Under the pieces are notes generated by a model that was not told the origin of the DNA, ran no database searches, and saw only the letters and a program-made list of their open reading frames with translations. A stretch of 64,000 bases of DNA from Babesia bovis T2Bo (taxonomy: Eukaryota; Apicomplexa; Aconoidasida; Piroplasmida; Babesiidae), in contig NC_010575.1 of assembly GCF_000165395.2 (NCBI RefSeq), positions 1,349,001 through 1,413,000 of the forward strand, written 5' to 3'. The first letter of the stretch is position 1; each line of letters starts with the position of its first letter. This document shows positions 37,892 to 59,670 of this stretch, in pieces. The position numbers and the translations under genes are program-made.

Positions 37892-38820
37892 CCCCATCTC
37901 ACTCAGTAAGTATTAATGTGCATTTACGACTCTAGGAATACGGAGCATATATAGCAGTCACCTGTGGCACCACAATAACCATGTCAAGCACTGACCAACA
38001 TTTGGATGTTATTAATATTCACAGCATAATATTGTGGCTCCACAGTATACTATCAGGATTGTCTATAGACTGGAGCTGTGATGAACATAGCCACATCAAT
38101 GGTCCTGGTGTATACCGATGTTATGGTGACATTGACGGGACCAAGGTTACAGTGATGTGAAACGTCTTGACAATGGACACTGTTTTGCTCAGACCTCAGT
38201 AGTGGCATCCGTTGTAACTCTGTAACAGTGTTAGATCACTCCAATGGCGCCATATAGGCTACATTAACAGTCATCAAATGTAAGGCTGTACGTCGGATGC
38301 TCAAGCGGTATAGGGTAACGTTTTGCTACATCGTCTACTATGGATTTAGGTTGCTGGTACGTTTGGAACAGAGTACCATAAGCAATACTGACTTTAACAG
38401 AAGTATTTCACCAGAGTAGCATATAACGCCAAAAGGCGCTTCATGGGACGGAATTGACATGAATGACCAACCGCTAAAATTATAATGTTCTTATGGTTGT
38501 GATTTCCATTGATTAACCGGCTATTACGTCACTAACCGTTTGGGAAACTGTGGAAGGATCTAGTTGTATGTGACTATAGTATGGAGGGTTAGAGACCATT
38601 GGACTTTGCATCGTCCAAGCTGGCATCACACTGCTGAAGTAGTGATTAATCAGCGCATTGTCGAATATAGACGACGATTGAATGATCCGTGATAACATGC
38701 AATGCATGAATCGTCCAATTCCCCAGGTGCATACCACCATATATTCATTATCAATTATTACACCATTTACCAACTGGATCCCTTAGGAAGATATTTGACT
38801 CACCTACAATTTTGTTAAGT
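37892..38820. other. Partial repeat unit: SBP2t upstream region, copy 1
   Basis: Corresponds to the spacer between the 437-residue gene and the SBP2t-like gene in full units. A frame open in other units (66-80 codons) has lost its ATG and gained a stop here, so it is not a conserved gene. Contains the palindrome at 38696-38708. This copy is closest to the copy-5 spacer (for example around 38510-38620 and 57700-57810). Confidence 0.75.
38696..38708. promoter_or_regulatory. CATGCA-A-TGCATG palindrome upstream of SBP2t copy 1
   Basis: Perfect 6-bp arms around one base, 113 bp before the ATG, nested on its right in outer arms GACGATT ... AATCGTC. The same element precedes all five SBP2t-like genes (43588, 48364, 53158, 57880). 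GCATGC-type cores are ApiAP2 targets in Plasmodium; a regulatory role here is inference. Confidence 0.4.
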
Positions 38821-39693
38821 ATGGAAGTAGCAAGGCGTAGCAACGGCTTCCGTAAGGTTGCCAAGTGGATTGTCGGCGCAGTTGTTGTGGCAGGTGCTGC
38901 CAGTGGCAATGTCCTATGCAATGAGGTTTCGGAACCACAACAGGCTGAACTTGGTGAAGTGAACACTGAGGTTAATGTGAATGAAGAAATTAACACCGAG
39001 GTTAAAGATTCAAAGAGCGCTGATGTAAATGTTGCTCACGCCGACATTAAATCCAAAGACCATGGAAATGAATCCGGTAAAAATGTAGCTGCTATTGCTC
39101 AAGATGTGAAGATATCAAGAGAACCGGAGGCTGTAGGTTTTGTCAGCTCTCTTGGCAAAGAGTACACTAACAGAGAAATAGACAACCTTATAGACCGAAC
39201 TGGTTTGACAGGTAAAAAAGGAGTAATCCGGCATATGTTAGGCGTCAGGAGGGCTGAATTATTACGTGAAATGAGGAAGTTCAACAGAATATTAGAATCT
39301 CTTCCAGAAGACATTGCTGTGAAAGCAGGCGCTTATGCAACCTATGATAAACTACCAGCTGATTTAGCTGAAAAAGTGAAATGGAGCCATCTGAATACTA
39401 CTACCTTTGGCCTTTTGGAAAAGGTCCCTCAAAACCTAGCAGATGAAATGATGAAATGTGATATTTACGAAGGATTCCCAGGTACTTTGATCGATAAAAT
39501 CAATGCATTTTTACATCCTGTCGATCCCTCTACTGTGATTAATGATAAAGAAAAAGATGGGAAGAGTGTTGATGGTACACCGGCCACACCGGGAAGTACT
39601 GAAGTTACAGAAGAAGCCGAAGAGAGAGAGGATGCCATAAAGGAGAGTGATGATAGTGTAAACGAGGGTAAGGAGTCCAAAGAAGAGGAATAA
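38821..39693 (+). CDS. SBP2-truncated-like protein, copy 1 (type A)
   Basis: 290 residues from ATG 38821. Signal peptide at residues 1-28 (MEVARRSNGFRKVAKW, then a hydrophobic AVVVAGAASG core). A low-complexity Glu/Val/Asn segment follows, then the type A body: a Gly-Lys-Glu-Tyr-Thr-Asn block, RRAELLREMRKFNRILESLP helix, and repeated LPxDLA-like turns. The tail is acidic and ends KESKEEE. The leader and architecture fit my memory of truncated spherical body protein 2 of B. bovis, a protein family exported from spherical bodies to the infected erythrocyte. The 3' flank keeps an in-frame relic of the type B C-terminus (PWYKFW codons at 39778-39795). Confidence 0.75.
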   Translation: MEVARRSNGFRKVAKWIVGAVVVAGAASGNVLCNEVSEPQQAELGEVNTEVNVNEEINTEVKDSKSADVNVAHADIKSKDHGNESGKNVAAIAQDVKISREPEAVGFVSSLGKEYTNREIDNLIDRTGLTGKKGVIRHMLGVRRAELLREMRKFNRILESLPEDIAVKAGAYATYDKLPADLAEKVKWSHLNTTTFGLLEKVPQNLADEMMKCDIYEGFPGTLIDKINAFLHPVDPSTVINDKEKDGKSVDGTPATPGSTEVTEEAEEREDAIKESDDSVNEGKESKEEE

Positions 39694-40274
39694 TTGGTTG
39701 ACAAAACTACGGAGTTAATACATAATACCTGAAAACAATGGAGATATTGAAAGTTACCAAGTAAACTTTAATCTAAACCATGGTACAAATTTTGGTAATT
39801 AATTGAAGAGGTCATGCCGTTTACTAATGGTAACAGTATTGAATGATAGTGTGGATTCCACAGCGCTAGAGACACGGCTCTCAACGAAGGAATAAAACAA
39901 GTGGTTCATTCCGATGTACATAATGTTGAGCGTATAATTTCTTATTGCATTGATCATGCATTTATACACATGTCTAGCGTTACACATTCCTTATAATATG
40001 TTGCAATATATACGATAAAACCGAGTTCATTTGCCAAATGTTATAAGAAAATGTATAACACGTAGACGCCTAACCCTCGAAATGCCGTTTAAATATAGTA
40101 TGCCAAGGGTACATTGGCTTTTGTGTAGTCGAAGGTGGTAACAGTCATGCCAGGGACAACTATGGGACGTGAGTAAACAAACCTACAATAATGTGCAAAA
40201 CACCATCCCAAGGCACCAATAGTGACTGATTTGGCCATATATGTGACCAATGTGTATCACATAATAAATAGGCT
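39694..40274. other. Spacer between SBP2t copy 1 and 5S copy 1
   Basis: 581 bp. Includes the relic coding end at 39778-39798 and conserved spacer shared by all units. The transcripts of the two flanking genes converge here. No other gene seen. Confidence 0.7.
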
Positions 40275-40389
40275 GCCGGCACCGAAAGGAGTTCCCGGGC
40301 GGTCCCCCACCCCAGTACTATCCCGGCCTAGCGCCGCTTGACTTCGGAGTTCGGATGGGATCCGGTATTTTCGACGCAGTATGGCCGGC
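40275..40389 (-). rRNA. 5S ribosomal RNA, copy 1
   Basis: 115-nt core on the minus strand, reading 5' GCCGGCCATACTGCGTCGAA and ending GGTGCCGGC. The terminal GCCGGC arms pair to form helix I. The internal control region typical of 5S genes is present: GAAGTCAAGCGGC (A box), GGGATAGTACTGGGG and GTGGGGGACC (C box). The mature end may extend a few bases. Downstream in the transcription direction there is no run of four T within about 80 nt (only TTT). The five copies look identical. Confidence 0.95.
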
Positions 40390-41346
40390 AACGATGATGA
40401 GCTCGGATACATCTACATATAGCACGTGGCAGCATTCAATATCCAGGCCATACAATGAATATCACTAACTGTTATACCCATTTGTGGATGTTAGTCAACA
40501 TAGCCTACTTTGCGCTGCTTGTACTAGACTCGTAATCAACAGCATATAGATCAGAACCTTATATGATATGGCGGCATAAAATGTCTTTCTTCATCCCTCT
40601 GTTGTATCATTGCTTGGCGATCATGGTGATGCCTAGTAGACACTGTCATGTGTTGCCCATTGGCAATATGGAATACGACCGGGTAGAAATCTATGGTTGC
40701 CACTGGCCTATTCCAATATCTGGTACGTTACCCAAGTTGTCACCCTGTAAACCCTATGCGTTTGTCTGAGATACTCTTTTCAACTGTGCCACTATCATAT
40801 AGTACTTTGTATTCAACATGGTGGTAGTCTTATGGTCAATCGGTCTTACAGTGACATACCCAATACCGTCCCAAACACCTACAGGTGGAAATCCACCATG
40901 TAAAAACGGAATGACATTCAAGCTGTGCATTGGCAGATACTATAGATGTTTTTCCATACCTAACTGAATATGTTACTAAGTCTGCCAGGACGCATATACT
41001 TATATGGAAACTATTAAGAGTGTCAATATATCTGGGTTCCAATGTCCTGATGTATACTATTCTGCCTGGAGTAATATTCCAATGAATAATCTGGCAAGTC
41101 TAATAACACAGAGTAATATACACTATGGGATGTCTCATGGCACTTGGTATGAAGTTGTTTATATTATTGTAAATATATTTTGTAGCAGTGACACAATGTG
41201 CCGTGAATGCTATCAGCCAACGATATCTAGTACATCAAGTTATCAATCAGCTGTTACAGCGATAATTCGAAATCGAGTTAGTGCCTACCGTAGAATAAGC
41301 AAACCCCCAGGTACAGTCTAGAATGCCTCAATTACAATATATTTAA
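40390..41346. pseudogene. 5S-to-437 gene spacer, unit 1, with gene-like fragments
   Basis: Holds a frame at 40563-40769 (68 codons; the second Met starts a signal-peptide-like MSFFIPLLYHCLAIMVM) and another at 41004-41321 (105 codons, with CSSDTMCRECYQP). Between them are stops in all frames that I could not remove with normal introns. The segment HGTWYEVVYIIVNIF faintly resembles HGWEYVVVNTMKVY of the 437-residue protein, so this may be a decayed relative. It could also be a spliced gene I failed to resolve. Confidence 0.4.
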
Positions 41347-42660
41347 ATGGCAGTTAGGTCCATAGTAAACATGGGCCCAATATGGACTTGCTTGCTACTT
41401 ATATGTCCTAGGCTATCATATGCTCTGGAAGTGGATCTCATGCAACCTACTATCCCCTACCCAGTAGAGAGTTTCGAAGGGAGTTTCTATGGTGGAGGTC
41501 GATTCAGACTGATACATTCAAGTACACCTAGTATAACCCTAGTCAAATATGGTAACCTCACAATCTTCAACAATATGTCTGGCATGAACAACTCATTGGA
41601 CGTATACGTCCAGGAATACAGGCGCGGCATTGGCCTGATTGTGTCCATCATCGATGTGGATAGGACTACTAATGAATCTAGGCATATAAGGCATTTCGAG
41701 ATTGTGGAAGACCAGTTAACATTGATTAACCGCATGAGGAAGCTTGATTTTGTAAATGGGCCCATATCACTGATGATTGACTTGTGGAGTATTAAGTTGA
41801 ACCCCCTTGTAATCAAGACGACCAAGGGAACCAATATACGATACCGTCTGGCTAGGCATTACAATGCAAAATTCAGGGACAGCATAAGCCGTATAAGAGG
41901 ATCTTATGATGTTTTCCTGATATCCCCTATAATGAATATAGACTGGTTGTACCAAACCCCTGGAAGTTCCCAATCATTAATCAGCTCACACAGTATTAGA
42001 GTACATGTGGACGTAGTATTGCAACAATTTACATTGTGGATCAAACATAAGGGTTACGTAGGTAACTACACGTTGAGCCTTCCTCTAGTAGTGAACGGTA
42101 TGTTCAAGGCACAGCACATACTGGACCCTTCATACCGCAATGTCCGCCCTATTCCAACGGGTGGCGCCAGTAGTACAGGTCAACTTGAGATTGACGTTTC
42201 CAGGTTTGAGAATAGTTCGCCCGAGGTCATTGTTGTAGCCAACCTTAGGAGGGGTTGCTGGCTGTACAGGCAATACTGCATTGTGCCGTTTCCGTACCCC
42301 GAACAAGTCGTAAGAGTTATCAACTCACAAGTCCAGACTGTTATTTATGAATCTAGTGGCGTGCTTGTAACGCACGTGGAGGTGTTTGACCACGTTGTTC
42401 ACGGCTGGGAATACGTGGTGGTGAACACGATGAAGGTATATGACACTGATATCAATGACGAGTTTCACACAGAGACCGTGCGAGAGGTTTTCAAGCGTAT
42501 GAGCAGCCAAGGTCCCAATGCATATTTTGACTTGAGCATGATATGTCGGTGCCCGTACGTGAAGATGCTCTATAGCATTAGCATATGGGAACAGAGTTGT
42601 GTCAACGTAGATGTACATGACCTCGTGGAAAGTGACTGCAAAGCCGTAGAGTGCTCGTGA
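41347..42660 (+). CDS. 437-residue signal-peptide protein, copy 1
   Basis: Unknown family. Signal peptide at residues 1-26 (MGPIWTCLLLICPRLSYA core). The remainder has no membrane helix or GPI-like tail. It has several N-x-S/T sequons and is rich in beta-type hydrophobic alternation. Cysteines cluster in the C-terminal third: CWLYRQYC, CRC, a single C, and the end DCKAVEC. That spacing could support a disulphide domain. Strict repetition of the gene in the array with its reading frame intact in all four copies argues it is functional. It alternates with the SBP2t-like genes on the same strand and is divergent from the preceding 5S gene. Confidence 0.8.
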   Translation: MAVRSIVNMGPIWTCLLLICPRLSYALEVDLMQPTIPYPVESFEGSFYGGGRFRLIHSSTPSITLVKYGNLTIFNNMSGMNNSLDVYVQEYRRGIGLIVSIIDVDRTTNESRHIRHFEIVEDQLTLINRMRKLDFVNGPISLMIDLWSIKLNPLVIKTTKGTNIRYRLARHYNAKFRDSISRIRGSYDVFLISPIMNIDWLYQTPGSSQSLISSHSIRVHVDVVLQQFTLWIKHKGYVGNYTLSLPLVVNGMFKAQHILDPSYRNVRPIPTGGASSTGQLEIDVSRFENSSPEVIVVANLRRGCWLYRQYCIVPFPYPEQVVRVINSQVQTVIYESSGVLVTHVEVFDHVVHGWEYVVVNTMKVYDTDINDEFHTETVREVFKRMSSQGPNAYFDLSMICRCPYVKMLYSISIWEQSCVNVDVHDLVESDCKAVECS

Positions 42661-43712: not shown

Positions 43713-44570
43713 ATGGAACTAGCAAGGCGTAACAACGGCTTCCGCAAGGTTGCCAAGTGGATTGCTGGTGCCCTTGTTGTGGCAGGTGCTGCCAGCGGAA
43801 ATGTCCTATGTGATGAGGTTTCGGAACCACAGGAGGCTGAAGTGAAGTCTGAGATTAATGTGAATGGAGAGGATAAGGCGATGAGTAATATTGAGAACGA
43901 TGATTTTGAAGCAATTATAGGCAGACTTCCACACGACCCTGCTGCAGTGGCCATTGTGAACTCAAGGGGCAAGTCCTTTACAAACCAAGACATTTACGGA
44001 TTGATCGATCACGATATACGCCTAGGTTTATTGTCCATAACGTTGACTGAAGAAGAGATACCAAGCGTCCGGGAAGGTATAGTAGAGTTAAGAAGACAGA
44101 AATTATTGGACGCCATATCCTTTTTCGATCAGCTACTATCAGAACTACCTGCTGAACTCGCCCAAGAAGCATCAAAGTACAGCTACCTTAGTGAACTACC
44201 TGAAGACCTAGCTAGTGCTCTTGACAAGTATGTCAAGGCTCTAAACGATAGAATCGAAAAAGAGCAAGACAAAATACGGGAGGCAGAAATGAAAAAAATG
44301 GTAGCTAAATGGCGAAAACAAAGAGGAAGAGTAGACGAAGAAGATGAAGAGGAGGACGAAGATGATCAACCCATAAAGAGCAAGATCAGTGCAAAGAAAA
44401 CAAGAAGATCACAGCAAGAGGAGGAAGAAGAGGACGAAGATGATCAACCCATAAAGAGCAAGATCAGTGCAAAGGACCAGAATCCATCAGAAAACAACCA
44501 TTTGAAAGGAAAAGCGCCAGAAAACGAAGATAAAAAGCCAAAATCCAAGCCATGGTACAAATTTTGGTAA
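43713..44570 (+). CDS. SBP2-truncated-like protein, copy 2 (type B)
   Basis: 285 residues from ATG 43713. Leader nearly the same as copy 1 (MELARRNNGFRKVAKW, hydrophobic core to ASG). The body is type B: GKSFTNQDIYGLIDHD, an RRQKLLDAISFFDQLLSELP helix, then a coiled coil. Two copies of an acidic-basic repeat (EDEDDQPIKSKISAK) separated by a KKTRRSQQ linker follow, then a C-terminal tail ending PWYKFW. Type A and B bodies align weakly (GKxxTN, RR-x-x-LL helix, SELP/ESLP turn), so they are homologous but diverged. Function unknown; family assignment from memory. Confidence 0.75.
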   Translation: MELARRNNGFRKVAKWIAGALVVAGAASGNVLCDEVSEPQEAEVKSEINVNGEDKAMSNIENDDFEAIIGRLPHDPAAVAIVNSRGKSFTNQDIYGLIDHDIRLGLLSITLTEEEIPSVREGIVELRRQKLLDAISFFDQLLSELPAELAQEASKYSYLSELPEDLASALDKYVKALNDRIEKEQDKIREAEMKKMVAKWRKQRGRVDEEDEEEDEDDQPIKSKISAKKTRRSQQEEEEEDEDDQPIKSKISAKDQNPSENNHLKGKAPENEDKKPKSKPWYKFW

Positions 44571-45047
44571 TTAATTGGAGAGGTCATGCCTCTTAGTAAT
44601 GGTAACAGTATTGAATGATAGTGTGGATTCCACAGCGCTAGAGACACGGCTCTCAAAGAAGGAATAAAACAATTGGTTCACGCCAATATACTTAAACGTT
44701 GAGCGTATAATTTCTTATTGCATTGATCATGCATTTATACACATGTCTAGCGTTACACATTCCTTATAATATGTTGCAATATATACGATAAAACCGAGTT
44801 CATTTGCCAAATGTTATAAGAAAATGTATAACACGTAGACGCCTAACCCTCGAAATGCCGTTTAAATATAGTATGCCAAGGGTACATTGGCTTCTGTATA
44901 GGCCAAGGTGGTAACCGTTATGCCAGGGACAACTATGGGAAGTGGATGCACAAACCTACAATAATGTGCAAAACACCATCCCAAGGCACCAATAGTGACT
45001 GATTTGGCCATATATGTGACCAATGTGTATCACATAATAAATAGGCT
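44571..45047. other. Spacer between SBP2t copy 2 and 5S copy 2
   Basis: 477 bp of conserved unit spacer. It carries the alternative patches CTCTTAGTAATGG and GTATAGGCCAAGG instead of those of copy 1. No gene seen. Confidence 0.7.
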
Positions 45048-45162
45048 GCCGGCACCGAAAGGAGTTCCCGGGCGGTCCCCCACCCCAGTACTATCCCGGC
45101 CTAGCGCCGCTTGACTTCGGAGTTCGGATGGGATCCGGTATTTTCGACGCAGTATGGCCGGC
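45048..45162 (-). rRNA. 5S ribosomal RNA, copy 2
   Basis: Same 115-nt core as copy 1, with GCCGGC terminal arms and the same internal control elements. No difference from copy 1 seen by eye. Confidence 0.95.
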
Positions 45163-46119
45163 AACGATGATGAGCTCGGATACATCTACATATAGCACGT
45201 GGCAGCATTCAATATCCAGGCCATACAATGAATATCACTAACTGTTATACCCATTTGTGGATGTTAGTCAACATAGCCTACTTTGCGCTGCTTGTACTAG
45301 ACTCGTAATCAACAGCATATAGATCAGAACCTTATATGATATGGCGGCATAAAATGTCTTTCTTCATCCCTCTGTTGTATCATTGCTTGGCGATCATGGT
45401 GATGCCTAGTAGACACTGTCATGTGTTGCCCATTGGCAATATGGAATACGACCGGGTAGAAATCTATGGTTGCCACTGGCCTATTCCAATATCTGGTACG
45501 TTACCCAAGTTGTCACCCTGTAAACCCTATGCGTTTGTCTGAGATACTCTTTTCAACTGTGCCACTATCATATAGTACTTTGTATTCAACATGGTGGTAG
45601 TCTTATGGTCAATCGGTCTTACAGTGACATACCCAATACCGTCCCAAACACCTACAGGTGGAAATCCACCATGTAAAAACGGAATGACATTCAAGCTGTG
45701 CATTGGCAGATACTATAGATGTTTTTCCATACCTAACTGAATATGTTACTAAGTCTGCCAGGACGCATATACTTATATGGAAACTATTAAGAGTGTCAAT
45801 ATATCTGGGTTCCAATGTCCTGATGTATACTATTCTGCCTGGAGTAATATTCCAATGAATAATCTGGCAAGTCTAATAACACAGAGTAATATACACTATG
45901 GGATGTCTCATGGCACTTGGTATGAAGTTGTTTATATTATTGTAAATATATTTTGTAGCAGTGACACAATGTGCCGTGAATGCTATCAGCCAACGATATC
46001 TAGTACATCAAGTTATCAATCAGCTGTTACAGCGATAATTCGAAATCGAGTTAGTGCCTACCGTAGAATAAGCAAACCCCCAGGTACAGTCTAGAATGCC
46101 TCAATTACAATATATTTAA
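45163..46119. pseudogene. 5S-to-437 gene spacer, unit 2, with gene-like fragments
   Basis: Same fragments as unit 1 (frames at 45336-45542 and 45777-46094), apparently identical in sequence. Intervening stops are also conserved. Confidence 0.4.
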
Positions 46120-47433
46120 ATGGCAGTTAGGTCCATAGTAAACATGGGCCCAATATGGACTTGCTTGCTACTTATATGTCCTAGGCTATCATATGCTCTG
46201 GAAGTGGATCTCATGCAACCTACTATCCCCTACCCAGTAGAGAGTTTCGAAGGGAGTTTCTATGGTGGAGGTCGATTCAGACTGATACATTCAAGTACAC
46301 CTAGTATAACCCTAGTCAAATATGGTAACCTCACAATCTTCAACAATATGTCTGGCATGAACAACTCATTGGACGTATACGTCCAGGAATACAGGCGCGG
46401 CATTGGCCTGATTGTGTCCATCATCGATGTGGATAGGACTACTAATGAATCTAGGCATATAAGGCATTTCGAGATTGTGGAAGACCAGTTAACATTGATT
46501 AACCGCATGAGGAAGCTTGATTTTGTAAATGGGCCCATATCACTGATGATTGACTTGTGGAGTATTAAGTTGAACCCCCTTGTAATCAAGACGACCAAGG
46601 GAACCAATATACGATACCGTCTGGCTAGGCATTACAATGCAAAATTCAGGGACAGCATAAGCCGTATAAGAGGATCTTATGATGTTTTCCTGATATCCCC
46701 TATAATGAATATAGACTGGTTGTACCAAACCCCTGGAAGTTCCCAATCATTAATCAGCTCACACAGTATTAGAGTACATGTGGACGTAGTATTGCAACAA
46801 TTTACATTGTGGATCAAACATAAGGGTTACGTAGGTAACTACACGTTGAGCCTTCCTCTAGTAGTGAACGGTATGTTCAAGGCACAGCACATACTGGACC
46901 CTTCATACCGCAATGTCCGCCCTATTCCAACGGGTGGCGCCAGTAGTACAGGTCAACTTGAGATTGACGTTTCCAGGTTTGAGAATAGTTCGCCCGAGGT
47001 CATTGTTGTAGCCAACCTTAGGAGGGGTTGCTGGCTGTACAGGCAATACTGCATTGTGCCGTTTCCGTACCCCGAACAAGTCGTAAGAGTTATCAACTCA
47101 CAAGTCCAGACTGTCGTTTATGAATCTAGTGGCGTGCTTGTAACGCACGTGGAGGTGTTTGACCACGTTGTTCACGGCTGGGAATACGTGGTGGTGAACA
47201 CGATGAAGGTATATGACACTGATATCAATGACGAGTTTCACACAGAGACCGTGCGAGAGGTTTTTAAGCGTATGAGCAGCCAAGGTCCCAATGCATATTT
47301 TGACTTGAGCATGATATGTCGGTGCCCGTACGTGAAGATGCTCTATAGCATTAGCATATGGGAACAGAGTTGTGTCAACGTAGATGTACATGACCTCGTG
47401 GAAAGTGACTGCAAAGCCGTAGAGTGCTCGTGA
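46120..47433 (+). CDS. 437-residue signal-peptide protein, copy 2
   Basis: Essentially the same protein as copy 1; the one residue difference I see is QTVVYESS where copy 1 has QTVIYESS. Signal peptide and the C-terminal cysteine cluster are unchanged. Confidence 0.8.
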   Translation: MAVRSIVNMGPIWTCLLLICPRLSYALEVDLMQPTIPYPVESFEGSFYGGGRFRLIHSSTPSITLVKYGNLTIFNNMSGMNNSLDVYVQEYRRGIGLIVSIIDVDRTTNESRHIRHFEIVEDQLTLINRMRKLDFVNGPISLMIDLWSIKLNPLVIKTTKGTNIRYRLARHYNAKFRDSISRIRGSYDVFLISPIMNIDWLYQTPGSSQSLISSHSIRVHVDVVLQQFTLWIKHKGYVGNYTLSLPLVVNGMFKAQHILDPSYRNVRPIPTGGASSTGQLEIDVSRFENSSPEVIVVANLRRGCWLYRQYCIVPFPYPEQVVRVINSQVQTVVYESSGVLVTHVEVFDHVVHGWEYVVVNTMKVYDTDINDEFHTETVREVFKRMSSQGPNAYFDLSMICRCPYVKMLYSISIWEQSCVNVDVHDLVESDCKAVECS

Positions 47434-48488: not shown

Positions 48489-49364
48489 ATGGAACTAGCA
48501 AGGCGTAACAACGGCTTCCGCAAGGTTGCCAAGTGGATTGCTGGTGCCCTTGTTGTGGCAGGTGCTGCCAGCGGAAATGTCCTATGTGATGAGGTTTCGG
48601 AACCACAGGAGGCTGAAGTGAAGTCTGAGATTAATGTGAATGGAGAGGATAAGGCGATGAGTAATATTGAGAACGATGATTTTGAAGCAATTATAGGCAG
48701 ACTTCCACACGACCCTGCTGCAGTGGCCATTGTGAACTCAAGGGGCAAGTCCTTTACAAACCAAGACATTTACGGATTGATCGATCACGATATACGCCTA
48801 GGTTTATTGTCCATAACGTTGACTGAAGAAGAGATACCAAGCGTCCGGGAAGGTATAGTAGAGTTAAGAAGACAGAAATTATTGGACGCCATATCCTTTT
48901 TCGATCAGCTACTATCAGAACTACCTGCTGAACTCGCCCAAGAAGCATCAAAGTACAGCTACCTTAGTGAACTACCTGAAGACCTAGCTAGTGCTCTTGA
49001 CAAGTATGTCAAGGCTCTAAACGATAGAATCGAAAAAGAGCAAGACAAAATACGGGAGGCAGAAATGAAAAAAATGGTAGCTAAATGGCGAAAACAAAGA
49101 GGAAGAGTAGACGAAGATGATGAATACGACGAAGAAGATGAAGAGGAGGACGAAGATGATCAACCCATAAAGAGCAAGATCAGTGCAAAGAAAACAAGAA
49201 GATCACAGCAAGAGGAGGAAGAAGAGGACGAAGATGATCAACCCATAAAGAGCAAGATCAGTGCAAAGGACCAGAATCCATCAGAAAACAACCATTTGAA
49301 AGGAAAAGCGCCAGAAAACGAAGATAAAAAGCCAAAATCCAAGCCATGGTACAAATTTTGGTAA
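48489..49364 (+). CDS. SBP2-truncated-like protein, copy 3 (type B)
   Basis: 291 residues from ATG 48489. Identical to copy 2 by eye except for an 18-nt in-frame insertion in the acidic run near 49117 (adds residues of the form DDEYDE). The expansion lies in a GAA/GAT-rich microsatellite-like tract, the likely cause of length change. Signal peptide, paired acidic-basic repeats and PWYKFW end are as in copy 2. Confidence 0.75.
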   Translation: MELARRNNGFRKVAKWIAGALVVAGAASGNVLCDEVSEPQEAEVKSEINVNGEDKAMSNIENDDFEAIIGRLPHDPAAVAIVNSRGKSFTNQDIYGLIDHDIRLGLLSITLTEEEIPSVREGIVELRRQKLLDAISFFDQLLSELPAELAQEASKYSYLSELPEDLASALDKYVKALNDRIEKEQDKIREAEMKKMVAKWRKQRGRVDEDDEYDEEDEEEDEDDQPIKSKISAKKTRRSQQEEEEEDEDDQPIKSKISAKDQNPSENNHLKGKAPENEDKKPKSKPWYKFW

Positions 49365-49841
49365 TTAATTGAAGAGGTCATGCCGTTTACTAATGGTAAC
49401 AGTATTGAATGATAGTGTGGATTCCACAGCGCTAGAGACACGGCTCTCAAATAAGGAATAAAACAATTGGTTCACGCCAATATACTTAAACGTTGAGCGT
49501 ATAATTTCTTATTGCATTGATCATGCATTTATACACATGTCTAGCGTTACACATTCCTTATAATATGTTGCAATATATACGATAAAACCGAGTTCATTTG
49601 CCAAATGTTATAAGAAAATGTATAACACGTAGACGCCTAACCCTCGAAATGCCGTTTAAATATAGTATGCCAAGGGTACATTGGCTTCTGTATAGGCCAA
49701 GGTGGTAACCGTTATGCCAGGGACAACTATGGGAAGTGGATGCACAAACCTACAATAATGTGCAAAACACCATCCCAAGGCACCAATAGTGACTGATTTG
49801 GCCATATATGTGACCAATGTGTATCACATAATAAATAGGCT
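49365..49841. other. Spacer between SBP2t copy 3 and 5S copy 3
   Basis: 477 bp. It combines the copy-1-type start (CCGTTTACTAATGG) with copy-2-type later patches (GTATAGGCCAAGG), a mosaic. No gene seen. Confidence 0.7.
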
Positions 49842-49956
49842 GCCGGCACCGAAAGGAGTTCCCGGGCGGTCCCCCACCCCAGTACTATCCCGGCCTAGCG
49901 CCGCTTGACTTCGGAGTTCGGATGGGATCCGGTATTTTCGACGCAGTATGGCCGGC
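49842..49956 (-). rRNA. 5S ribosomal RNA, copy 3
   Basis: Same 115-nt core as the other copies; GCCGGC terminal arms and internal control region intact. Confidence 0.95.
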
Positions 49957-50913
49957 AACGATGATGAGCTCGGATACATCTACATATAGCACGTGGCAGC
50001 ATTCAATATCCAGGCCATACAATGAATATCACTAACTGTTATACCCATTTGTGGATGTTAGTCAACATAGCCTACTTTGCGCTGCTTGTACTAGACTCGT
50101 AATCAACAGCATATAGATCAGAACCTTATATGATATGGCGGCATAAAATGTCTTTCTTCATCCCTCTGTTGTATCATTGCTTGGCGATCATGGTGATGCC
50201 TAGTAGACACTGTCATGTGTTGCCCATTGGCAATATGGAATACGACCGGGTAGAAATCTATGGTTGCCACTGGCCTATTCCAATATCTGGTACGTTACCC
50301 AAGTTGTCACCCTGTAAACCCTATGCGTTTGTCTGAGATACTCTTTTCAACTGTGCCACTATCATATAGTACTTTGTATTCAACATGGTGGTAGTCTTAT
50401 GGTCAATCGGTCTTACAGTGACATACCCAATACCGTCCCAAACACCTACAGGTGGAAATCCACCATGTAAAAACGGAATGACATTCAAGCTGTGCATTGG
50501 CAGATACTATAGATGTTTTTCCATACCTAACTGAATATGTTACTAAGTCTGCCAGGACGCATATACTTATATGGAAACTATTAAGAGTGTCAATATATCT
50601 GGGTTCCAATGTCCTGATGTATACTATTCTGCCTGGAGTAATATTCCAATGAATAATCTGGCAAGTCTAATAACACAGAGTAATATACACTATGGGATGT
50701 CTCATGGCACTTGGTATGAAGTTGTTTATATTATTGTAAATATATTTTGTAGCAGTGACACAATGTGCCGTGAATGCTATCAGCCAACGATATCTAGTAC
50801 ATCAAGTTATCAATCAGCTGTTACAGCGATAATTCGAAATCGAGTTAGTGCCTACCGTAGAATAAGCAAACCCCCAGGTACAGTCTAGAATGCCTCAATT
50901 ACAATATATTTAA
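49957..50913. pseudogene. 5S-to-437 gene spacer, unit 3, with gene-like fragments
   Basis: Same content as units 1 and 2 (frames at 50130-50336 and 50571-50888), apparently identical in sequence, including the intervening stops. Confidence 0.4.
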
Positions 50914-52227
50914 ATGGCAGTTAGGTCCATAGTAAACATGGGCCCAATATGGACTTGCTTGCTACTTATATGTCCTAGGCTATCATATGCTCTGGAAGTG
51001 GATCTCATGCAACCTACTATCCCCTACCCAGTAGAGAGTTTCGAAGGGAGTTTCTATGGTGGAGGTCGATTCAGACTGATACATTCAAGTACACCTAGTA
51101 TAACCCTAGTCAAATATGGTAACCTCACAATCTTCAACAATATGTCTGGCATGAACAACTCATTGGACGTATACGTCCAGGAATACAGGCGCGGCATTGG
51201 CCTGATTGTGTCCATCATCGATGTGGATAGGACTACTAATGAATCTAGGCATATAAGGCATTTCGAGATTGTGGAAGACCAGTTAACATTGATTAACCGC
51301 ATGAGGAAGCTTGATTTTGTAAATGGGCCCATATCACTGATGATTGACTTGTGGAGTATTAAGTTGAACCCCCTTGTAATCAAGACGACCAAGGGAACCA
51401 ATATACGATACCGTCTGGCTAGGCATTACAATGCAAAATTCAGGGACAGCATAAGCCGTATAAGAGGATCTTATGATCTTTTCCTGATATCCCCTATTCT
51501 GAATGTAGACTGGTTGTACCAAACCCCTGGAGGTTCCCAATCATTAATCAGTTCACACAGTATTAGAGTACATGTGGACGTAGTATTGCAACAATTTACA
51601 TTGTGGATCAAACATAAGGGTTACGTAGGTAACTACACGTTGAGCCTTCCTCTAGTAGTGAACGGTATGTTCAAGGCACAGCACATACTGGACCCTTCAT
51701 ACCGCAATGTCCGCCCTATTCCAACGGGTGGCGCCAGTAGTACAGGTCAACTTGAGATTGACGTTTCCAGGTTTGAGAATAGTTCGCCCGAGGTCATTGT
51801 TGTAGCCAACCTTAGGAGGGGTTGCTGGCTGTACAGGCAATACTGCATTGTGCCGTTTCCGTACCCCGAACAAGTCGTAAGAGTTATCAACTCACAAGTC
51901 CAGACTGTCGTTTATGAATCTAGTGGCGTGCTTGTAACGCACGTGGAGGTGTTTGACCACGTTGTTCACGGCTGGGAATACGTGGTGGTGAACACGATGA
52001 AGGTATATGACACTGATATCAATGACGAGTTTCACACAGAGACCGTGCGAGAGGTTTTCAAGCGTATGAGCAGCCAAGGTCCCAATGCATATTTTGACTT
52101 GAGCATGATATGTCGGTGCCCGTACGTGAAGATGCTCTATAGCATTAGCATATGGGAACAGAGTTGTGTCAACGTAGATGTACATGACCTCGTGGAAAGT
52201 GACTGCAAAGCCGTAGAGTGCTCGTGA
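50914..52227 (+). CDS. 437-residue signal-peptide protein, copy 3
   Basis: Nearly the same as copy 2, with a local block of changes around 51478-51552: SYDLFLISPILNVDW and QTPGGSQ in place of SYDVFLISPIMNIDW and QTPGSSQ. The clustered changes suggest a short conversion tract rather than scattered mutation. Confidence 0.8.
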   Translation: MAVRSIVNMGPIWTCLLLICPRLSYALEVDLMQPTIPYPVESFEGSFYGGGRFRLIHSSTPSITLVKYGNLTIFNNMSGMNNSLDVYVQEYRRGIGLIVSIIDVDRTTNESRHIRHFEIVEDQLTLINRMRKLDFVNGPISLMIDLWSIKLNPLVIKTTKGTNIRYRLARHYNAKFRDSISRIRGSYDLFLISPILNVDWLYQTPGGSQSLISSHSIRVHVDVVLQQFTLWIKHKGYVGNYTLSLPLVVNGMFKAQHILDPSYRNVRPIPTGGASSTGQLEIDVSRFENSSPEVIVVANLRRGCWLYRQYCIVPFPYPEQVVRVINSQVQTVVYESSGVLVTHVEVFDHVVHGWEYVVVNTMKVYDTDINDEFHTETVREVFKRMSSQGPNAYFDLSMICRCPYVKMLYSISIWEQSCVNVDVHDLVESDCKAVECS

Positions 52228-53282: not shown

Positions 53283-53993
53283 ATGGAACTAGCAAGGCGT
53301 AACAACGGCTTCCGCAAGGTTGCCAAGTGGATTGCTGGTGCCCTTGTTGTGGCAGGTGCTGCCAGCGGAAATGTTGATGCTGAATCTCACCTTCATGGTG
53401 GTAAAAGCATTCCATCCAATGCACCTGAAGCTGTAGTGTTTGTCAGCTCTCTTGGCAAAGAGTACACTAACAAAGAAATAGACAATCTTGTGGATAGATC
53501 TGGTTTGAAAGGTAGCAAAGGAGTAATCCGGCACATGTTAGGCGTCAGGAGGGCTGAATTATTACGTGAAATGAGGAAGTTCAACAGAATATTAGAATCT
53601 CTTCCAGAAGACATTGCTGTGAAAGCAGGCGCTTATGCAACCTATGATAAACTACCAGCTGATTTAGCTGAAAAAGTGAAATGGAGCCATCTGAATACTA
53701 CTACCTTTGGCCTTTTGGAAAAGGTCCCTCAAAACCTAGCAAATGAAATGTTGGCATGTGATATTTACGAAGGATTCCCAGCTGATTTGATCGATAAAAT
53801 CAATGAATTTTTACATCCGTTCGATCCCTCTACTGTGATTAATGATAAAGAAGAAGATGGGAAGAGTGTTGATGGTACACCGGCCACACCGGGAAGTACT
53901 GAAGTTACAGAAGAAGCCGAAGAGAGAGAGGATGCCATAAAGGAGAGTGATGATAGTGTAAACGAGGGTAAGGAGTCCAAAGAAGAGGAATAA
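53283..53993 (+). CDS. SBP2-truncated-like protein, copy 4 (type A, short)
   Basis: 236 residues from ATG 53283. The leader is that of the type B copies (MELARRNNGFRKVAKW), but the body is type A and lacks most of the Glu/Val/Asn segment of copy 1, joining almost directly to the conserved VFVSSLGKEYTN block. From there it tracks copy 1 closely through the acidic KESKEEE end. The 3' flank again holds the in-frame PWYKFW relic (54078-54095). It looks like a recombinant of type B 5' sequence with a type A body. Confidence 0.75.
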   Translation: MELARRNNGFRKVAKWIAGALVVAGAASGNVDAESHLHGGKSIPSNAPEAVVFVSSLGKEYTNKEIDNLVDRSGLKGSKGVIRHMLGVRRAELLREMRKFNRILESLPEDIAVKAGAYATYDKLPADLAEKVKWSHLNTTTFGLLEKVPQNLANEMLACDIYEGFPADLIDKINEFLHPFDPSTVINDKEEDGKSVDGTPATPGSTEVTEEAEEREDAIKESDDSVNEGKESKEEE

Positions 53994-54569: not shown

Positions 54570-54684
54570 GCCGGCACCGAAAGGAGTTCCCGGGCGGTCC
54601 CCCACCCCAGTACTATCCCGGCCTAGCGCCGCTTGACTTCGGAGTTCGGATGGGATCCGGTATTTTCGACGCAGTATGGCCGGC
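54570..54684 (-). rRNA. 5S ribosomal RNA, copy 4
   Basis: Same 115-nt core as the other copies; GCCGGC terminal arms and internal control region intact. Confidence 0.95.
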
Positions 54685-55639: not shown

Positions 55640-56953
55640 ATGGCAGATAGGTCCATAGTAAACATGGGCCCAATATGGACTTCCTTGCTACTGATATGTT
55701 CCAGGCTATCATATGCTCTGGAAGTGGATCTCATGCAGCCTACTATCCCCTACCCAGTCGAGAGTTTCGAAGGGAGCTTCTATGGTGGAGGTCGATTCAG
55801 ACTGATACATTCAAGTACACCTAGTATAACCCTGGTCAAATATGGTAACCTCACAATCTTCAACAATATGTCTGGCATGAACAAGGCATTGGATGTATAC
55901 GTCCAAGAATACAGGCGAGGCATTGGCCTGATTGTGTCCATCATCGATGTGGATAGGACTACTAATGGATCTAGGCATATAAGGCATTTCGAGATTGCGG
56001 ACGACCAGTTAAGATTGATTAATCGTGCGACGAAGCTTGATTTTTTAAATGGGCCCATATCACTGATGATTGACTTGTGGAGTGCTAAGTTGAACCCCCT
56101 TGTAATCAAGTCTACCAAGGGAACAAATATACGATACCGCCTGGCCAAACATTACAATGCAAAATTCAGGGACAGCATAAGCCGTATAAGAGGATCTTAT
56201 GATGTTTTCCTGATATCCCCTATAATGAATATAGACTGGTTGTACCAAACCCCTGGAAGTTCCCAATCATTAATCAGCTCACACAGTATTAGAGTACATG
56301 TGGACGTCGTATTGCAACACTTTACATTGTGGATCAAACATAAGGGTTACGTAGGTAACTACACGTTGAGTCTGCCTCCAGTAGTGAACGGTATGTTCAA
56401 GGCACAGCACATACTGGACCCTTCATACCGCAATGTCCGCCCTATTCCAACGGGTGGCGCCAGTAGTACAGGTCAACTTGAGATTGATCTATCCAGGTTT
56501 GATAATAGTTCACCAGAGGTCATCGTTGTAGCCAACCTTAGGAGGGGTTGCTGGCTGTACAGGCAATACTGCATTGTGCCGTTTCCGTACCCCGAACAAG
56601 TTGTCAGAGTTACCAACTCAAAAGTCCAGACTGTTATTTATGAATCTGGTGACGTGCTTGTAACGCACGTGGAGGTGTTTGACCACGTTGTTCATGGGTG
56701 GGAATACGTGGTGGTGAACACGATGAAGGTATATGACACTGATATCACGGACGAGTTTCACACAGAGACCGTGCGAGAGGTTTTTAAGCGTATGAGCAGC
56801 CAAGGTCCCAATGCATATTTTGACTTGAGCATGATATGTCGGTGCCCGTACGTGAAGATGCTCTATAACATTAGCGTATGGGAACAGAGTTGTGTCAACG
56901 TAGATATACATGACCTCGTGGAAAGTGACTGTAAAGCCGTAGACTGTTCGTGA
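55640..56953 (+). CDS. 437-residue signal-peptide protein, copy 4 (most diverged)
   Basis: Same length and frame as copies 1-3 but with many scattered substitutions, for example MADRSIVN, MNKALDVY, ADDQLRLINRATKLDFLNG and YESGDVLV. Signal peptide and all C-terminal cysteines are conserved. Retention of an intact frame with substitutions spread along the protein suggests a functional variant maintained at the array edge. Confidence 0.8.
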   Translation: MADRSIVNMGPIWTSLLLICSRLSYALEVDLMQPTIPYPVESFEGSFYGGGRFRLIHSSTPSITLVKYGNLTIFNNMSGMNKALDVYVQEYRRGIGLIVSIIDVDRTTNGSRHIRHFEIADDQLRLINRATKLDFLNGPISLMIDLWSAKLNPLVIKSTKGTNIRYRLAKHYNAKFRDSISRIRGSYDVFLISPIMNIDWLYQTPGSSQSLISSHSIRVHVDVVLQHFTLWIKHKGYVGNYTLSLPPVVNGMFKAQHILDPSYRNVRPIPTGGASSTGQLEIDLSRFDNSSPEVIVVANLRRGCWLYRQYCIVPFPYPEQVVRVTNSKVQTVIYESGDVLVTHVEVFDHVVHGWEYVVVNTMKVYDTDITDEFHTETVREVFKRMSSQGPNAYFDLSMICRCPYVKMLYNISVWEQSCVNVDIHDLVESDCKAVDCS

Positions 56954-58004
56954 CTTCAAGGTATCATCTGTTTGTGTACATATGGTAGCCTCAGTGTATC
57001 CATTTGATATAGTGCTAACCACTAACTGCAGGCTACATCTCTCATTGTGCTATTGTTACACAATGTGGTAATCCCCATCTCACACAGTAAGTATTAATGT
57101 GCATTTACGACTCTAGGAATACGGAGCATATATAGCAGTCACCTGTGGCACCACAATAACCATGTCAAGCACTGACCAACATTTGGATGTGATCAATATT
57201 CACAGCATAATCTTGTGGCTCCACAGTATACTATCAGGATTGTCTATAGACTGGGAGCGTGAAGACTATGGTCACATTAGCAGAGGTTCTAGTGTATAGC
57301 GATGATATGGTGACATTGACGGGACCAAGGTTACAGTGATGTGAACCGTCTAGACAATGGACACTGTTTTGCTCAGACCTCAGTAGTGGCATCCGTTGTA
57401 ACTCTGTAACAGTGTTAGATCACTCCAATGGCGCCATATAGGCTACATTAACAGTCATCAAATGTAAGGCTGTACGTCGGATGCTCAAGCGGTATAGGGT
57501 AACGTTTTGCTACATCGTCTACTATGGATTTAGGTTGCTGGTACGTTTGGAACAGAGTACCATAAGCAATACTGACTTTAACAGAAGTATTTCACCAGAG
57601 TAGCATATAACGCCAAAAGGCGCTTCATGGGACGGAATTGACATGAATGACCAACCGCTAAAATTATAATGTTCTTATGGTTGTGATTTCCATTGATTAA
57701 CCGGCTATTACGTCACTAACCGTTTGGGAAACTGTGGAAGGATCTAGTTGTATGTGACTATAGTATGGAGGGTTAGAGACCATTGGACTTTGCATCGTCC
57801 AAGCTGGCATCACACTGCTGAAGTAGTGATTAATCAGCGCATTGTCGAATATAGACGACGATTGAATGATCCGTGATAACATGCAATGCATGAATCGTCC
57901 AATTCCCCAGGTGCATACCACCATATATTCATTATCAATTATTACACCATTTACCAAGTGGATCCCGCAGGAAGATATTTGAATCATCTGCAATTTTGTT
58001 AAGT
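56954..58004. other. 437 gene-to-SBP2t spacer, unit 4
   Basis: Combines the patch of units 2 and 3 (GAGCGTGAAGACTATGGTC near 57255) with flanking sequence like that of the left partial unit (stop-containing start near 57110, and 57400-57810). Palindrome at 57880-57892. Confidence 0.7.
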
Positions 58005-58820
58005 ATGGAACTAGCAAGGCGTAACAACGGCTTCCGCAAGGTTGCCAAGTGGATTGTTGGCGCAGTTGTTGTGGCAGGTGCTGCCAGTGGCAATGTCATA
58101 TGTGATGAGGTTTCGGAACCACAGGAGGCTGAAGTGAAGTCTGAGATTAATGTGAATGGAGAGGATAAGGCGATGAGTAATATTGAAGAGGACGATTTTG
58201 ATGCAGTTATAGGCAGGCTTCCACACGACCCATCTGCTGTGGCCATTCTGAACTCAAGGGGCAAGTCGTTTACAAACCAAGACATTTACGGATTGATAGA
58301 TCACGATATACGCCTAGGTGTATTGCCCATAAAGTTGTCTGAAGAAGAGATACCTAGAGTTCGGGAACGTATAGTAGAGTTAAGAAGAAAGAAGTTGTTG
58401 GACGCCATATCCTATTTCGATCAGTTACTATCAGAACTACCTGATGAACTCGCCCAAGAAGCATCGAAATACAGTTACCTTAGTGAATTACCTGAAGACC
58501 TAGCCAATGCTCTTGAGGACTATGTAAAGGCTCTTAACGATAGAATCGAAGCAGAGCAAGACAAAATAAGGGAAGCAGAAATGAAAGAAATGTTCGAAAA
58601 AATGAAGGAAGAAGGAGCGCAAAATATGGGAGGAGCAGGAACAACGAATGTATCTATGCCACCAAGTGGAAAAGGAGAGCACAATAATGAAGTGACGGAA
58701 GCCAATAAAACCGATGGTTCAATGGATCAGAATCCATCAGAAAACAACCATTTGAAAGGGAAAGCACCAGAAAACGAAGATAAAAAACCGAAATCCAAGC
58801 CATGGTACAAATTTTGGTAA
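58005..58820 (+). CDS. SBP2-truncated-like protein, copy 5 (type B, variant)
   Basis: 271 residues from ATG 58005. The leader has the copy-1-like core (IVGAVVVAGAASG). The type B body has many substitutions relative to copies 2 and 3. The paired acidic-basic repeat is absent; in its place is a Gly/Met-rich segment (QNMGGAGTTNVSMPPSGKG). The C-terminal tail ending PWYKFW is conserved. If the remembered numbering applies, this would be the last member of the cluster, but I cannot confirm which locus it is. Confidence 0.75.
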   Translation: MELARRNNGFRKVAKWIVGAVVVAGAASGNVICDEVSEPQEAEVKSEINVNGEDKAMSNIEEDDFDAVIGRLPHDPSAVAILNSRGKSFTNQDIYGLIDHDIRLGVLPIKLSEEEIPRVRERIVELRRKKLLDAISYFDQLLSELPDELAQEASKYSYLSELPEDLANALEDYVKALNDRIEAEQDKIREAEMKEMFEKMKEEGAQNMGGAGTTNVSMPPSGKGEHNNEVTEANKTDGSMDQNPSENNHLKGKAPENEDKKPKSKPWYKFW

Positions 58821-59297
58821 TTAATTGAAGAGGTCATGCCGTTTACTAATGGTAACAGTATTGAATGATAGTGTGGATTCCACAGCGCTAGAGACAGAGC
58901 TCTCAAAGAAGGAATAAAACAATTGGTTCACGCCAATATACTTAAACGTTGAGCGTATAATTTCTTATTGCATTGATCATGCATTTATACACATGTCTAG
59001 CGTTACACATTCCTTATAATATGTTGCAATATATACGATAAAACCGAGTTCATTTGCCAAATGTTATAAGAAAATGTATAACACGTAGACGCCTAACCCT
59101 CGAAATGCCGTTTAAATATAGTATGCCAAGGGTACATTGGCTTTTGTGTAGTCGAAGGTGGTAACAGTCATGCCAGGGACAACTATGGGACGTGAGTAAA
59201 CAAACCTACAATAATGTGCAAAACACCATCCCAAGGCACCAATGGTGACTATTTTGGCCATATGTGTGGCCAATGTGTATCACATAATAAATAGGCT
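58821..59297. other. Spacer between SBP2t copy 5 and 5S copy 5
   Basis: 477 bp. Starts like copies 1 and 3, has the copy-2-type middle (TTCACGCCAATATAC), then copy-1-type later patches (TAGTCGAAGG, CGTGAGTAAAC). No gene seen. Confidence 0.7.
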
Positions 59298-59412
59298 GCC
59301 GGCACCGAAAGGAGTTCCCGGGCGGTCCCCCACCCCAGTACTATCCCGGCCTAGCGCCGCTTGACTTCGGAGTTCGGATGGGATCCGGTATTTTCGACGC
59401 AGTATGGCCGGC
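59298..59412 (-). rRNA. 5S ribosomal RNA, copy 5 (array edge)
   Basis: Same 115-nt core as the others, but the sequence just upstream of its 5' end (59416 onward) is unique rather than the usual CGATGATGAGCTCGG. Since 5S genes use an internal promoter it may still be expressed, unless upstream sequence contributes. Confidence 0.93.
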
Positions 59413-59670
59413 AACAGGCTTGTGCAAAATTGGTTTTTCATTACTCATGGTTATACACATTTTATGTTTGATTTTAATTGTTGGATATTCCCCTAATGAT
59501 GAATAAGAAATCTACATATTGTAACACTTCCAAATTTATCTCTATATTTATGAATACTTTAATTGATACATGACGGCATGATAGTTACAAATCCGATCAT
59601 TGACGTGGCTTAAGAATCCAAGTCGCACATCGCATGGCAGAAAATTCACTTTTTTGTGTTCAATGTCAAA

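What the first reader, a model, noticed from the sequence alone, without database searches (positions are those of the whole stretch)
37892..59415. 5S rRNA genes embedded in a tandem array of two secreted-protein gene families
Four complete 4.73-4.79 kb units plus a partial one each link a minus-strand 5S gene with a plus-strand 437-residue signal-peptide gene and an SBP2t-like gene. Linking a multicopy structural RNA to host-interaction gene families means selection for 5S number and homogenisation of 5S could drive copy number and sequence exchange of the protein genes. I know of no description of this composite unit. That the SBP2t copies lie in a chromosome 3 cluster in B. bovis is from memory.
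Basis: partly seen in the sequence, partly recalled or inferred. Interest (0 to 1): 0.88.

Follow-up and report, generated by a model that had tools for sequence, protein, structure and literature searches.

The report
Babesia 5S genes within secreted-protein array
In the sequenced strain of the cattle parasite Babesia bovis, every 5S ribosomal RNA gene that could be detected sits inside copies of one duplicated DNA block that also carries genes for secreted-type proteins, so a household gene and likely host-interaction genes are copied and reshuffled together.

Summary
Confirmed to the base: repeat homology runs 37892-59415, with five identical minus-strand 5S genes 4728-4794 bp apart, four 437-codon genes and five sbp2t genes. 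The genome (Babesia bovis T2Bo) holds nine detectable 5S genes and all nine lie in complete or truncated copies of this composite: five here, three in two other clusters on the same contig, one on contig C2. Eight are identical; one has a single substitution. Unit parts outside the sbp2t coding region align at 82-98% between clusters and are mosaic, with 337 and 418 bp tracts identical between clusters 140 and 187 kb apart. Each C3 cluster lies within 2 kb of an ABC-transporter paralogue only 37-46% like the window's, so the units seem homogenised after their surroundings diverged. Best reading: a segmental-duplication family evolving in concert by unequal crossing-over and ectopic gene conversion. 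That 5S causes the exchange is not shown: comparable tracts lie away from it, and both protein families also multiply with no adjoining 5S. Copy number rests on one assembly; other species could not be tested; no paper I searched describes the linkage.

The parts
37892..40392 (+). Partial first unit W1: 437-sbp2t spacer from its position ~120, sbp2t gene, 5S
   Evidence: Self-BLAST limits; the same left edge recurs at contig C2:175134
38821..39693 (+). sbp2t gene, 290 aa (sbp2t7 by order of locus tags, inferred)
   Evidence: ORF; 89.7% to a deposited B. bovis SBP2t7 that differs from this genome
40271..40392 (-). 5S rRNA gene, W1
   Evidence: RF00001, 106 bits; identical to 7 of the other 8 genomic copies
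40393..41346 (.). 954-bp divergent spacer between the 5S 5' end and the 437-codon gene; site of the tracts shared with clusters A and B
41347..42660 (+). 437-codon gene, unit 2
   Evidence: ORF; dN/dS 0.25-0.37 in the 12 of 15 copy pairs with dS of 0.088 or more; all-beta AF2 model
43713..44570 (+). sbp2t gene, 285 aa (sbp2t8 by order, inferred)
   Evidence: ORF; named relatives
45044..45165 (-). 5S rRNA gene, W2
46120..47433 (+). 437-codon gene, unit 3
48489..49364 (+). sbp2t gene, 291 aa (sbp2t9 by order, inferred); no substitution and one 18-bp indel against the copy at 43713
49838..49959 (-). 5S rRNA gene, W3
50914..52227 (+). 437-codon gene, unit 4
53283..53993 (+). sbp2t gene, 236 aa (sbp2t10 by order, inferred); C-terminal module shared with the copy at 38821
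   Evidence: 90.3% to a deposited B. bovis SBP2t10 that differs from this genome
54566..54687 (-). 5S rRNA gene, W4
55640..56953 (+). 437-codon gene, unit 5, the most diverged of the four
58005..58820 (+). sbp2t gene, 271 aa (sbp2t11 by order, inferred)
   Evidence: 79.5% to a deposited B. bovis SBP2t11 that differs from this genome
59294..59415 (-). 5S rRNA gene, W5; unit homology stops exactly at its 5' end
32525..37195 (+). ABC transporter gene bordering the array; its two nearest paralogues border or lie inside the other two C3 clusters
   Evidence: Pfam PF00005 and PF00664; genome search
59671..61824 (+). FG nucleoporin-like gene, right border, 255 bp from the last 5S
   Evidence: Pfam PF13634

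Best explanation
All detectable nuclear 5S rRNA genes of B. bovis T2Bo are carried by one family of segmental duplications whose unit is 5S(-) | 0.95 kb | 437-codon secreted-type gene(+) | 1.05 kb | sbp2t(+) | 0.47-0.58 kb | next 5S(-). Shown: nine of nine detected 5S genes in such units or truncated units; mosaic identity with significant shared tracts; near-invariant 5S; purifying selection on the intact 437-codon copies; swapped sbp2t C-terminal modules. Inferred: an ancestral segment holding an ABC transporter, sbp2t, 437 and 5S was duplicated; local arrays grew by unequal crossing-over (the near-identical stretch through W1-W3 is the youngest part); ectopic gene conversion keeps units alike across clusters. 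5S is kept constant mainly by selection, with conversion helping; the protein genes share the same recombination, and the sbp2t 3' halves are reshuffled by it. Which gene's selection maintains copy number is open.
For: Nine 5S by covariance model and by DNA search, with no tenth at E<=1; a published table also lists nine, possibly from the same assembly (PMC5660447 Table 2, passage). Unit anatomy at the four 5S outside the window; unit parts other than sbp2t coding align at 82-98% to the window reference unit. 5S: 8 of 9 identical over 122 nt, one substitution in copy B. Run test: W1-A 418 bp, W1-B 337 bp, W1-W5 609 bp, 0 of 1000 permutations each. The three C3 clusters each lie within 0.7-2 kb of one of the three closest ABC paralogues, 37-46% alike to the window copy in protein by segment (36.8% over 914 columns). 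The left edges of the C2 and window arrays share ~190 bp of weaker homology outside the unit (score 84, best of 40 shuffles 27; 1 of 10 flanks tested). dN/dS 0.25-0.37 in the 12 of 15 pairs with dS of 0.088 or more.
Against: The order of events is inferred from one genome with no outgroup. Independent recent insertions of units beside ABC genes are not formally excluded. The run test assumes even rates along the alignment and looks at gap-free columns only; selection could lengthen runs in coding DNA, though the two cited cross-cluster tracts are in spacer. Tracts shared with the C2 copy D are short: longest 34-105 bp on the right side, and two of its five right-side pairs are not significant (p 0.08). 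Copies A (upstream of its sbp2t), B and C are truncated, so breakpoints differ and no single clean unit boundary was found. sbp2t coding identity falls to 33-50% between modules. Tandem copy number depends on one assembly.
Confidence: 0.75

Rival explanations
1. One reading: selection for 5S dose and 5S homogenisation is the engine; 5S acts as an anchor for gene conversion and the protein genes amplify and exchange because they are tied to it.
For: All nine detected 5S are linked; in all six tested pairs of W1, W3 or W4 with A or B the longest shared tract begins 10-423 bp from the 5S and ends by 840 bp.
Against: Similar or longer tracts away from 5S (A-B 364 bp in the 437-codon gene; W1-W5 609 bp in the 437-sbp2t spacer) and a 459-462 bp stretch at 81-90% in the ABC genes (it covers a nucleotide-binding domain, so constraint may explain part of it). 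26 of 35 437-family loci are distant relatives, and by coordinates none lies within 200 kb of a 5S. Gene conversion is already described for ves genes of this parasite (PMC6630957, passages).
Confidence: 0.2
2. The reverse: host-interaction genes amplify under their own selection and the 5S genes are passengers whose older unlinked copies were lost.
For: Both protein families are large and also cluster without adjoining 5S; a diverged sbp2-like gene lies about 0.8 kb from a 31% 437 homologue on C4 with no 5S, hinting that the pair is older than the 5S link.
Against: 5S is invariant or nearly so although some 437 copies beside it are broken or cut (C2:178540; C3:1196812; C3:1259499) and sbp2t frames vary, so 5S is the most constrained part; the C4 pair is tail to tail, unlike the unit, and its chance was not assessed.
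Confidence: 0.3
3. Functional coupling: the 5S gene and its bound Pol III factors act as an insulator or open-chromatin element for the flanking protein genes.
For: Nearly constant spacing in the window (952-954, 1051-1055, 473 or 572-577 bp) and 5S opposite to its neighbours in all units mapped.
Against: Published blood-stage levels of the five array sbp2t genes run from 4 to 290, while the two highest sbp2-family genes, BBOV_II000680 (3356) and BBOV_II000740 (1059), have no adjoining 5S by inferred position (PMC7701181 Table 2, passages). The t8 and t9 coding sequences are nearly the same, so those two values are unsafe.
Confidence: 0.1
4. Assembly artefact: the array, or its number of units, is a product of assembling near-identical repeats.
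For: W1-W3 are 96-100% alike over kilobases of their right-hand parts apart from one 150-bp bin (88%), and t8 and t9 differ only by 18 bp; one genome only.
Against: Units carry distinct sbp2t 3' modules; deposited B. bovis relatives of t7, t10 and t11 that differ from this genome exist, though the listing does not state their strain; the same linkage occurs in separate contexts on C2 and C3.
Confidence: 0.05

Closest known systems
5S-histone, 5S-spliced-leader and 5S-snRNA mixed repeats of animals and protists (recalled; only listings and abstract starts of related papers seen)
   Same: 5S shares a tandem repeat with another multigene family and can evolve in concert with it
   Different: The partners here are fast-evolving secreted-type protein genes of a parasite, and the whole detected 5S set of the genome is in the composite
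Plasmodium 5S locus (PMC12235521, passages)
   Same: Few 5S genes in an apicomplexan, linked head to tail
   Different: One locus of three 5S flanked by Pol III genes (a proline tRNA and SRP RNA); the passages mention no protein genes between them
sbp2 truncated gene clusters of B. bovis (PMC5848574, part 1 of 4 and passages; PMC3826834, passages)
   Same: The same genes, three clusters on chromosome 3
   Different: The parts of those papers that I read describe sbp2t alone, without 5S or the 437-codon partner
ves segmental gene conversion in B. bovis (PMC6630957, passages)
   Same: Short tracts copied between dispersed family members
   Different: There it alters expressed ves genes; here it covers a composite with a structural RNA gene

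Membership tests
5S rRNA (RF00001) | Full-length match above the gathering score | tested here: met
   Five in the window, model 1-120, 106 bits against 38; nine in the genome, 102.1-106 bits
5S rRNA (RF00001) | Transcribed into ribosomes | not testable with these tools
   No RNA data held; identity of 8 of 9 copies makes function likely
Canonical tandem 5S array with non-coding spacer | Spacer free of protein genes | tested here: not met
   Two protein genes per complete unit
SBP2 truncated family | Sequence relatedness to named SBP2t proteins | tested here: met
   The copy at 58005 hits named SBP2 truncated copies; at other loci exact translation matches to t2, t4, t5
SBP2 truncated family | Export by way of spherical bodies | not testable with these tools
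   Literature only (PMC5848574, part 1 of 4)
437-codon family as a known Pfam family (FAINT/DUF529 considered, name recalled) | Match to a Pfam model | tested here: inconclusive
   No family for the window protein at E<=1; among 12 members two families at E<=0.1, one member each; structure search without a clear match
Mixed 5S/other multigene repeat | Repeat unit contains both genes and is tandemly repeated | tested here: met
Mixed 5S/other multigene repeat | Concerted evolution of the unit | tested here: inconclusive
   Mosaic identity and run test support it, but with one genome the similarity within against between isolates is untested
Transposable element carrying 5S | Fixed ends, terminal repeats or a recombinase gene | tested here: inconclusive
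   Copy ends differ between loci and the unit ORFs scanned show no recombinase domain, but no dedicated element search was run

The most novel reading that the evidence does not exclude
The composite is a host-interaction rDNA: the need to keep 5S copies numerous and identical sustains ectopic recombination that also maintains and reshuffles two secreted-protein families, tying a parasite's translation machinery to the evolution of its host-cell-modifying proteins.
Probability: 0.2. Interest if true: 0.85.

Novelty: new variant of a known kind. Interest (0 to 1): 0.66.

Why it matters
5S genes are usually found in arrays of their own, dispersed, or beside other conservative genes (recalled). 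A parasite whose complete detected 5S set shares its repeat unit with host-cell-modifying protein genes is a natural test of whether homogenising an essential RNA gene can shape neighbouring adaptive genes. It also warns that sbp2t expression and copy-number studies work on a repeat in which two copies have the same coding sequence apart from 18 bp.

Tried and rejected
Missing Pol III terminator as an oddity: no run of four T within 70 nt of any of the nine 5S (first at +71 in six, then +99, +220, +233), but only 8 of 20 tRNA genes of the same genome have one within 20 nt (20 of the 60 tRNA matches: the 19 best and one weak one), so this is ordinary here and read-through into sbp2t is not argued.

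Conserved promoter block 5' of 5S: no full 20-nt bin stands out (15-19 invariant columns of 20 among W1, A, B, C and D).

Linkage in other species: not testable. Protein relatives of the 437 family came from Babesia sp. Xinjiang (five) and B. ovis (one) besides B. bovis; the SBP2t11 search listed only B. bovis proteins where a name was given.

5S relics near other family members: none of any RNA family at E<=0.5 in 14 loci.

45S rDNA position: the 18S search did not complete.

Rows left out: run test, right side: W2 (nearly the same as W1), W5 and C (no full right side); left side: W3 (nearly the same as W2), A (not homologous upstream of its sbp2t) and B (75 bp only). Left out of dN/dS: the broken C2 copy, the truncated copy at C3:1196812 and the fragment at C3:1259499. 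The cluster-1 ABC gene was compared as DNA over part of its length only (L062 covers C3:1193000-1195400).

Full report
IDENTITY. The window is G000:C3:1349001-1413000 of an 8.23 Mb genome in 8 contigs. Proteins deposited as Babesia bovis T2Bo (for example BBOV_III005620, BBOV_II000710, SBP2 truncated copies 2, 4 and 5) are matched exactly by translations at other loci of the same genome, so the organism is B. bovis T2Bo.

OBSERVATION. Five 5S genes, all minus strand, each 106 bits to RF00001, spaced 4728-4794 bp. Repeat homology begins at 37892 and ends at 59415. Between successive 5S genes lie a 437-codon ORF and an sbp2t ORF, both on the plus strand. Spacings are nearly constant: 5S to 437 ATG 952-954 bp, 437 stop to sbp2t ATG 1051-1055 bp, sbp2t stop to 5S 473 or 572-577 bp. 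The first unit lacks the 437-codon gene; the last ends exactly at the 5' end of its 5S, beyond which the sequence differs. The array lies between an ABC transporter and an FG nucleoporin-like gene.

WHOLE GENOME. A covariance search (47 of 279 candidates scored) and a DNA search both find nine 5S genes; the DNA search finds no tenth at E<=1. A published comparison also lists nine for B. bovis, against six in B. ovata and B. bigemina, two in B. microti, three in P. falciparum and 47 in T. gondii (PMC5660447 Table 2, passage seen); it may rest on the same assembly. The four 5S outside the window lie in the same composite: A, C3:1202512, with sbp2t on one side and the 437-codon gene on the other; B, C3:1249499, inverted, with the 437-codon gene and the next sbp2t, and only 75 bp of homology on its 3' side; C, C3:1257056, inverted, with sbp2t and, beyond it, a 437 fragment, and 180 bp on its 5' side; D, C2:177461, with both, its 437 copy broken (a TAG and a second reading frame). 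So sbp2t adjoins the 3' side of 8 of 9 5S and the 437-codon gene the 5' side of 7 of 9; each 5S has at least one of them. Eight of nine 5S are identical over 122 nt and B has one substitution.

PROTEIN FAMILIES. The 437-codon gene has 36 matching rows in the genome, i.e. 35 loci since one gene gives two rows: nine close (85% or more) and 26 distant (23-33%). All nine close copies are in or at the edge of the composite clusters; by coordinates none of the 26 distant ones lies within 200 kb of a 5S. The protein has no Pfam family at E<=1 and relatives in Babesia sp. Xinjiang and B. ovis. Its model is all-beta, of moderate confidence, without a clear structural match. The 12 of 15 pairs of intact copies with dS of 0.088 or more give dN/dS 0.25-0.37; the three other pairs differ at eight sites or fewer. 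So it is a real gene under purifying selection. Its signal peptide was not tested with a predictor. The sbp2t ORF at 58005 hits named SBP2 truncated copies. By locus-tag order the five are t7 to t11 (inferred); t7, t9 and t11 are reported as raised in attenuated strains (PMC3826834 passages; PMC5848574 part 1 of 4). Deposited B. bovis proteins so named, which differ from this genome and whose strain the listing does not state, agree at 89.7% for t7, 90.3% for t10 and 79.5% for t11, but the one named t9 is only 57.5% like the copy at 48489 and is closest to t4 (71.3%).

EXCHANGE. Identity along the unit is patchy. A matches W1-W3 at 100% from 450 to 750 bp from the 5S but at 95% at 150-300 bp; B matches W1-W3 at 99-100% at 150-450 bp and W1 at 81-97% elsewhere; W1 and W4 share the sbp2t 3' module at 94-100% where W1 and W2 are 33-50% alike; W1 and W5 are 100% alike in part of the 437-sbp2t spacer where W1 against W2-W4 is 78-89%. 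A permutation test on runs of agreement at gap-free polymorphic sites gives 0 of 1000 for W1-A (418 bp), W1-B (337 bp) and W1-W5 (609 bp). On the right side 13 of 15 pairs had p<=0.001 (the two misses are W1-D and W3-D, 0.08); on the left side 13 of 15 (the others 0.011 and 0.033). Rows were dropped before the test as listed under Tried and rejected. Tracts shared with the C2 copy are short (34-105 bp on the right side).

SURROUNDINGS. The window's ABC transporter has two close relatives in the genome, at C3:1251668-1256149 and C3:1190857-1195329, 37-46% alike in protein; the other matches, on C1 and at C3:2387496, are short and weaker. These two lie inside or beside the two other C3 clusters, within about 2 kb of unit DNA. 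As DNA the parts compared align with the window copy mainly over one 459-462 bp stretch at 81-90%; this lies in the first nucleotide-binding domain, so constraint may explain part of it. The left edge of the window array and that of the C2 array begin at the same point of the unit and share ~190 bp of weaker homology beyond it (score 84 against a best shuffle of 27; the nine other flanks tested gave nothing). Units are therefore more alike than their surroundings. The simplest account is old segmental duplication with later homogenisation of the units; repeated recent insertion beside ABC genes is the alternative.

MECHANISM AND CAUSE. Shown: shared unit, mosaicism, near-invariance of 5S, selection on the 437-codon gene. 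Inferred: unequal crossing-over for the tandem copies and ectopic gene conversion between clusters. Not shown: that 5S causes the exchange. In its favour, the longest tracts shared by the window array with A and B lie near 5S. Against, tracts of similar or greater length lie elsewhere, and members of both families multiply without adjoining 5S. Co-regulation is weak: published blood-stage values for the five array genes run from 4 to 290, while BBOV_II000680 and BBOV_II000740, with no adjoining 5S by inferred position, reach 3356 and 1059 (PMC7701181 Table 2, passages).

NOVELTY. Searches: 'Babesia bovis' + '5S rRNA' (11 papers; passages read in three of them), 'spherical body protein' + '5S rRNA' (one paper, on B. 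gibsoni; passages read, no linkage told), six locus tags of the array (three papers; passages read in two). Nothing that I saw describes the linkage. The B. bovis genome paper is not held, so an earlier mention there is possible. Mixed 5S repeats with histone, spliced-leader or snRNA genes are known (recalled; listings and abstract starts seen), so this is a new variant of a known kind.

Noticed in passing
window 43713-44570 and 48489-49364: The two sbp2t coding sequences differ by no substitution and one 18-bp indel, so assays meant for one of them may count both.
   Followed up: partly
window 32525-37195; G000 C3:1251668-1256149; C3:1190857-1195329: Three ABC-transporter paralogues, each bordering or inside one of the three C3 5S clusters; one 459-462 bp stretch in a nucleotide-binding domain is far more alike than the rest.
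   Followed up: partly
G000 C4:642147-642776 and C4:643686-644876: A diverged sbp2-like gene tail to tail with a 31% relative of the 437-codon gene and no 5S; possibly an older pairing.
   Followed up: partly
G000 C3:2415859-2434186: Ten distant 437-family members in tandem, another array of the family, with no 5S there.
   Followed up: no
G000 tRNA genes (L063-L082): Only 8 of 20 tRNA genes have a run of four T within 20 nt downstream, so Pol III termination here may use weaker signals.
   Followed up: partly
G000 C2:178540-179851: A broken 437 copy appears to be deposited as a shorter gene model (P0003, 418 aa).
   Followed up: no
window 15729-18167: An LCCL-domain protein gene (PF03815) on the minus strand.
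   Followed up: no
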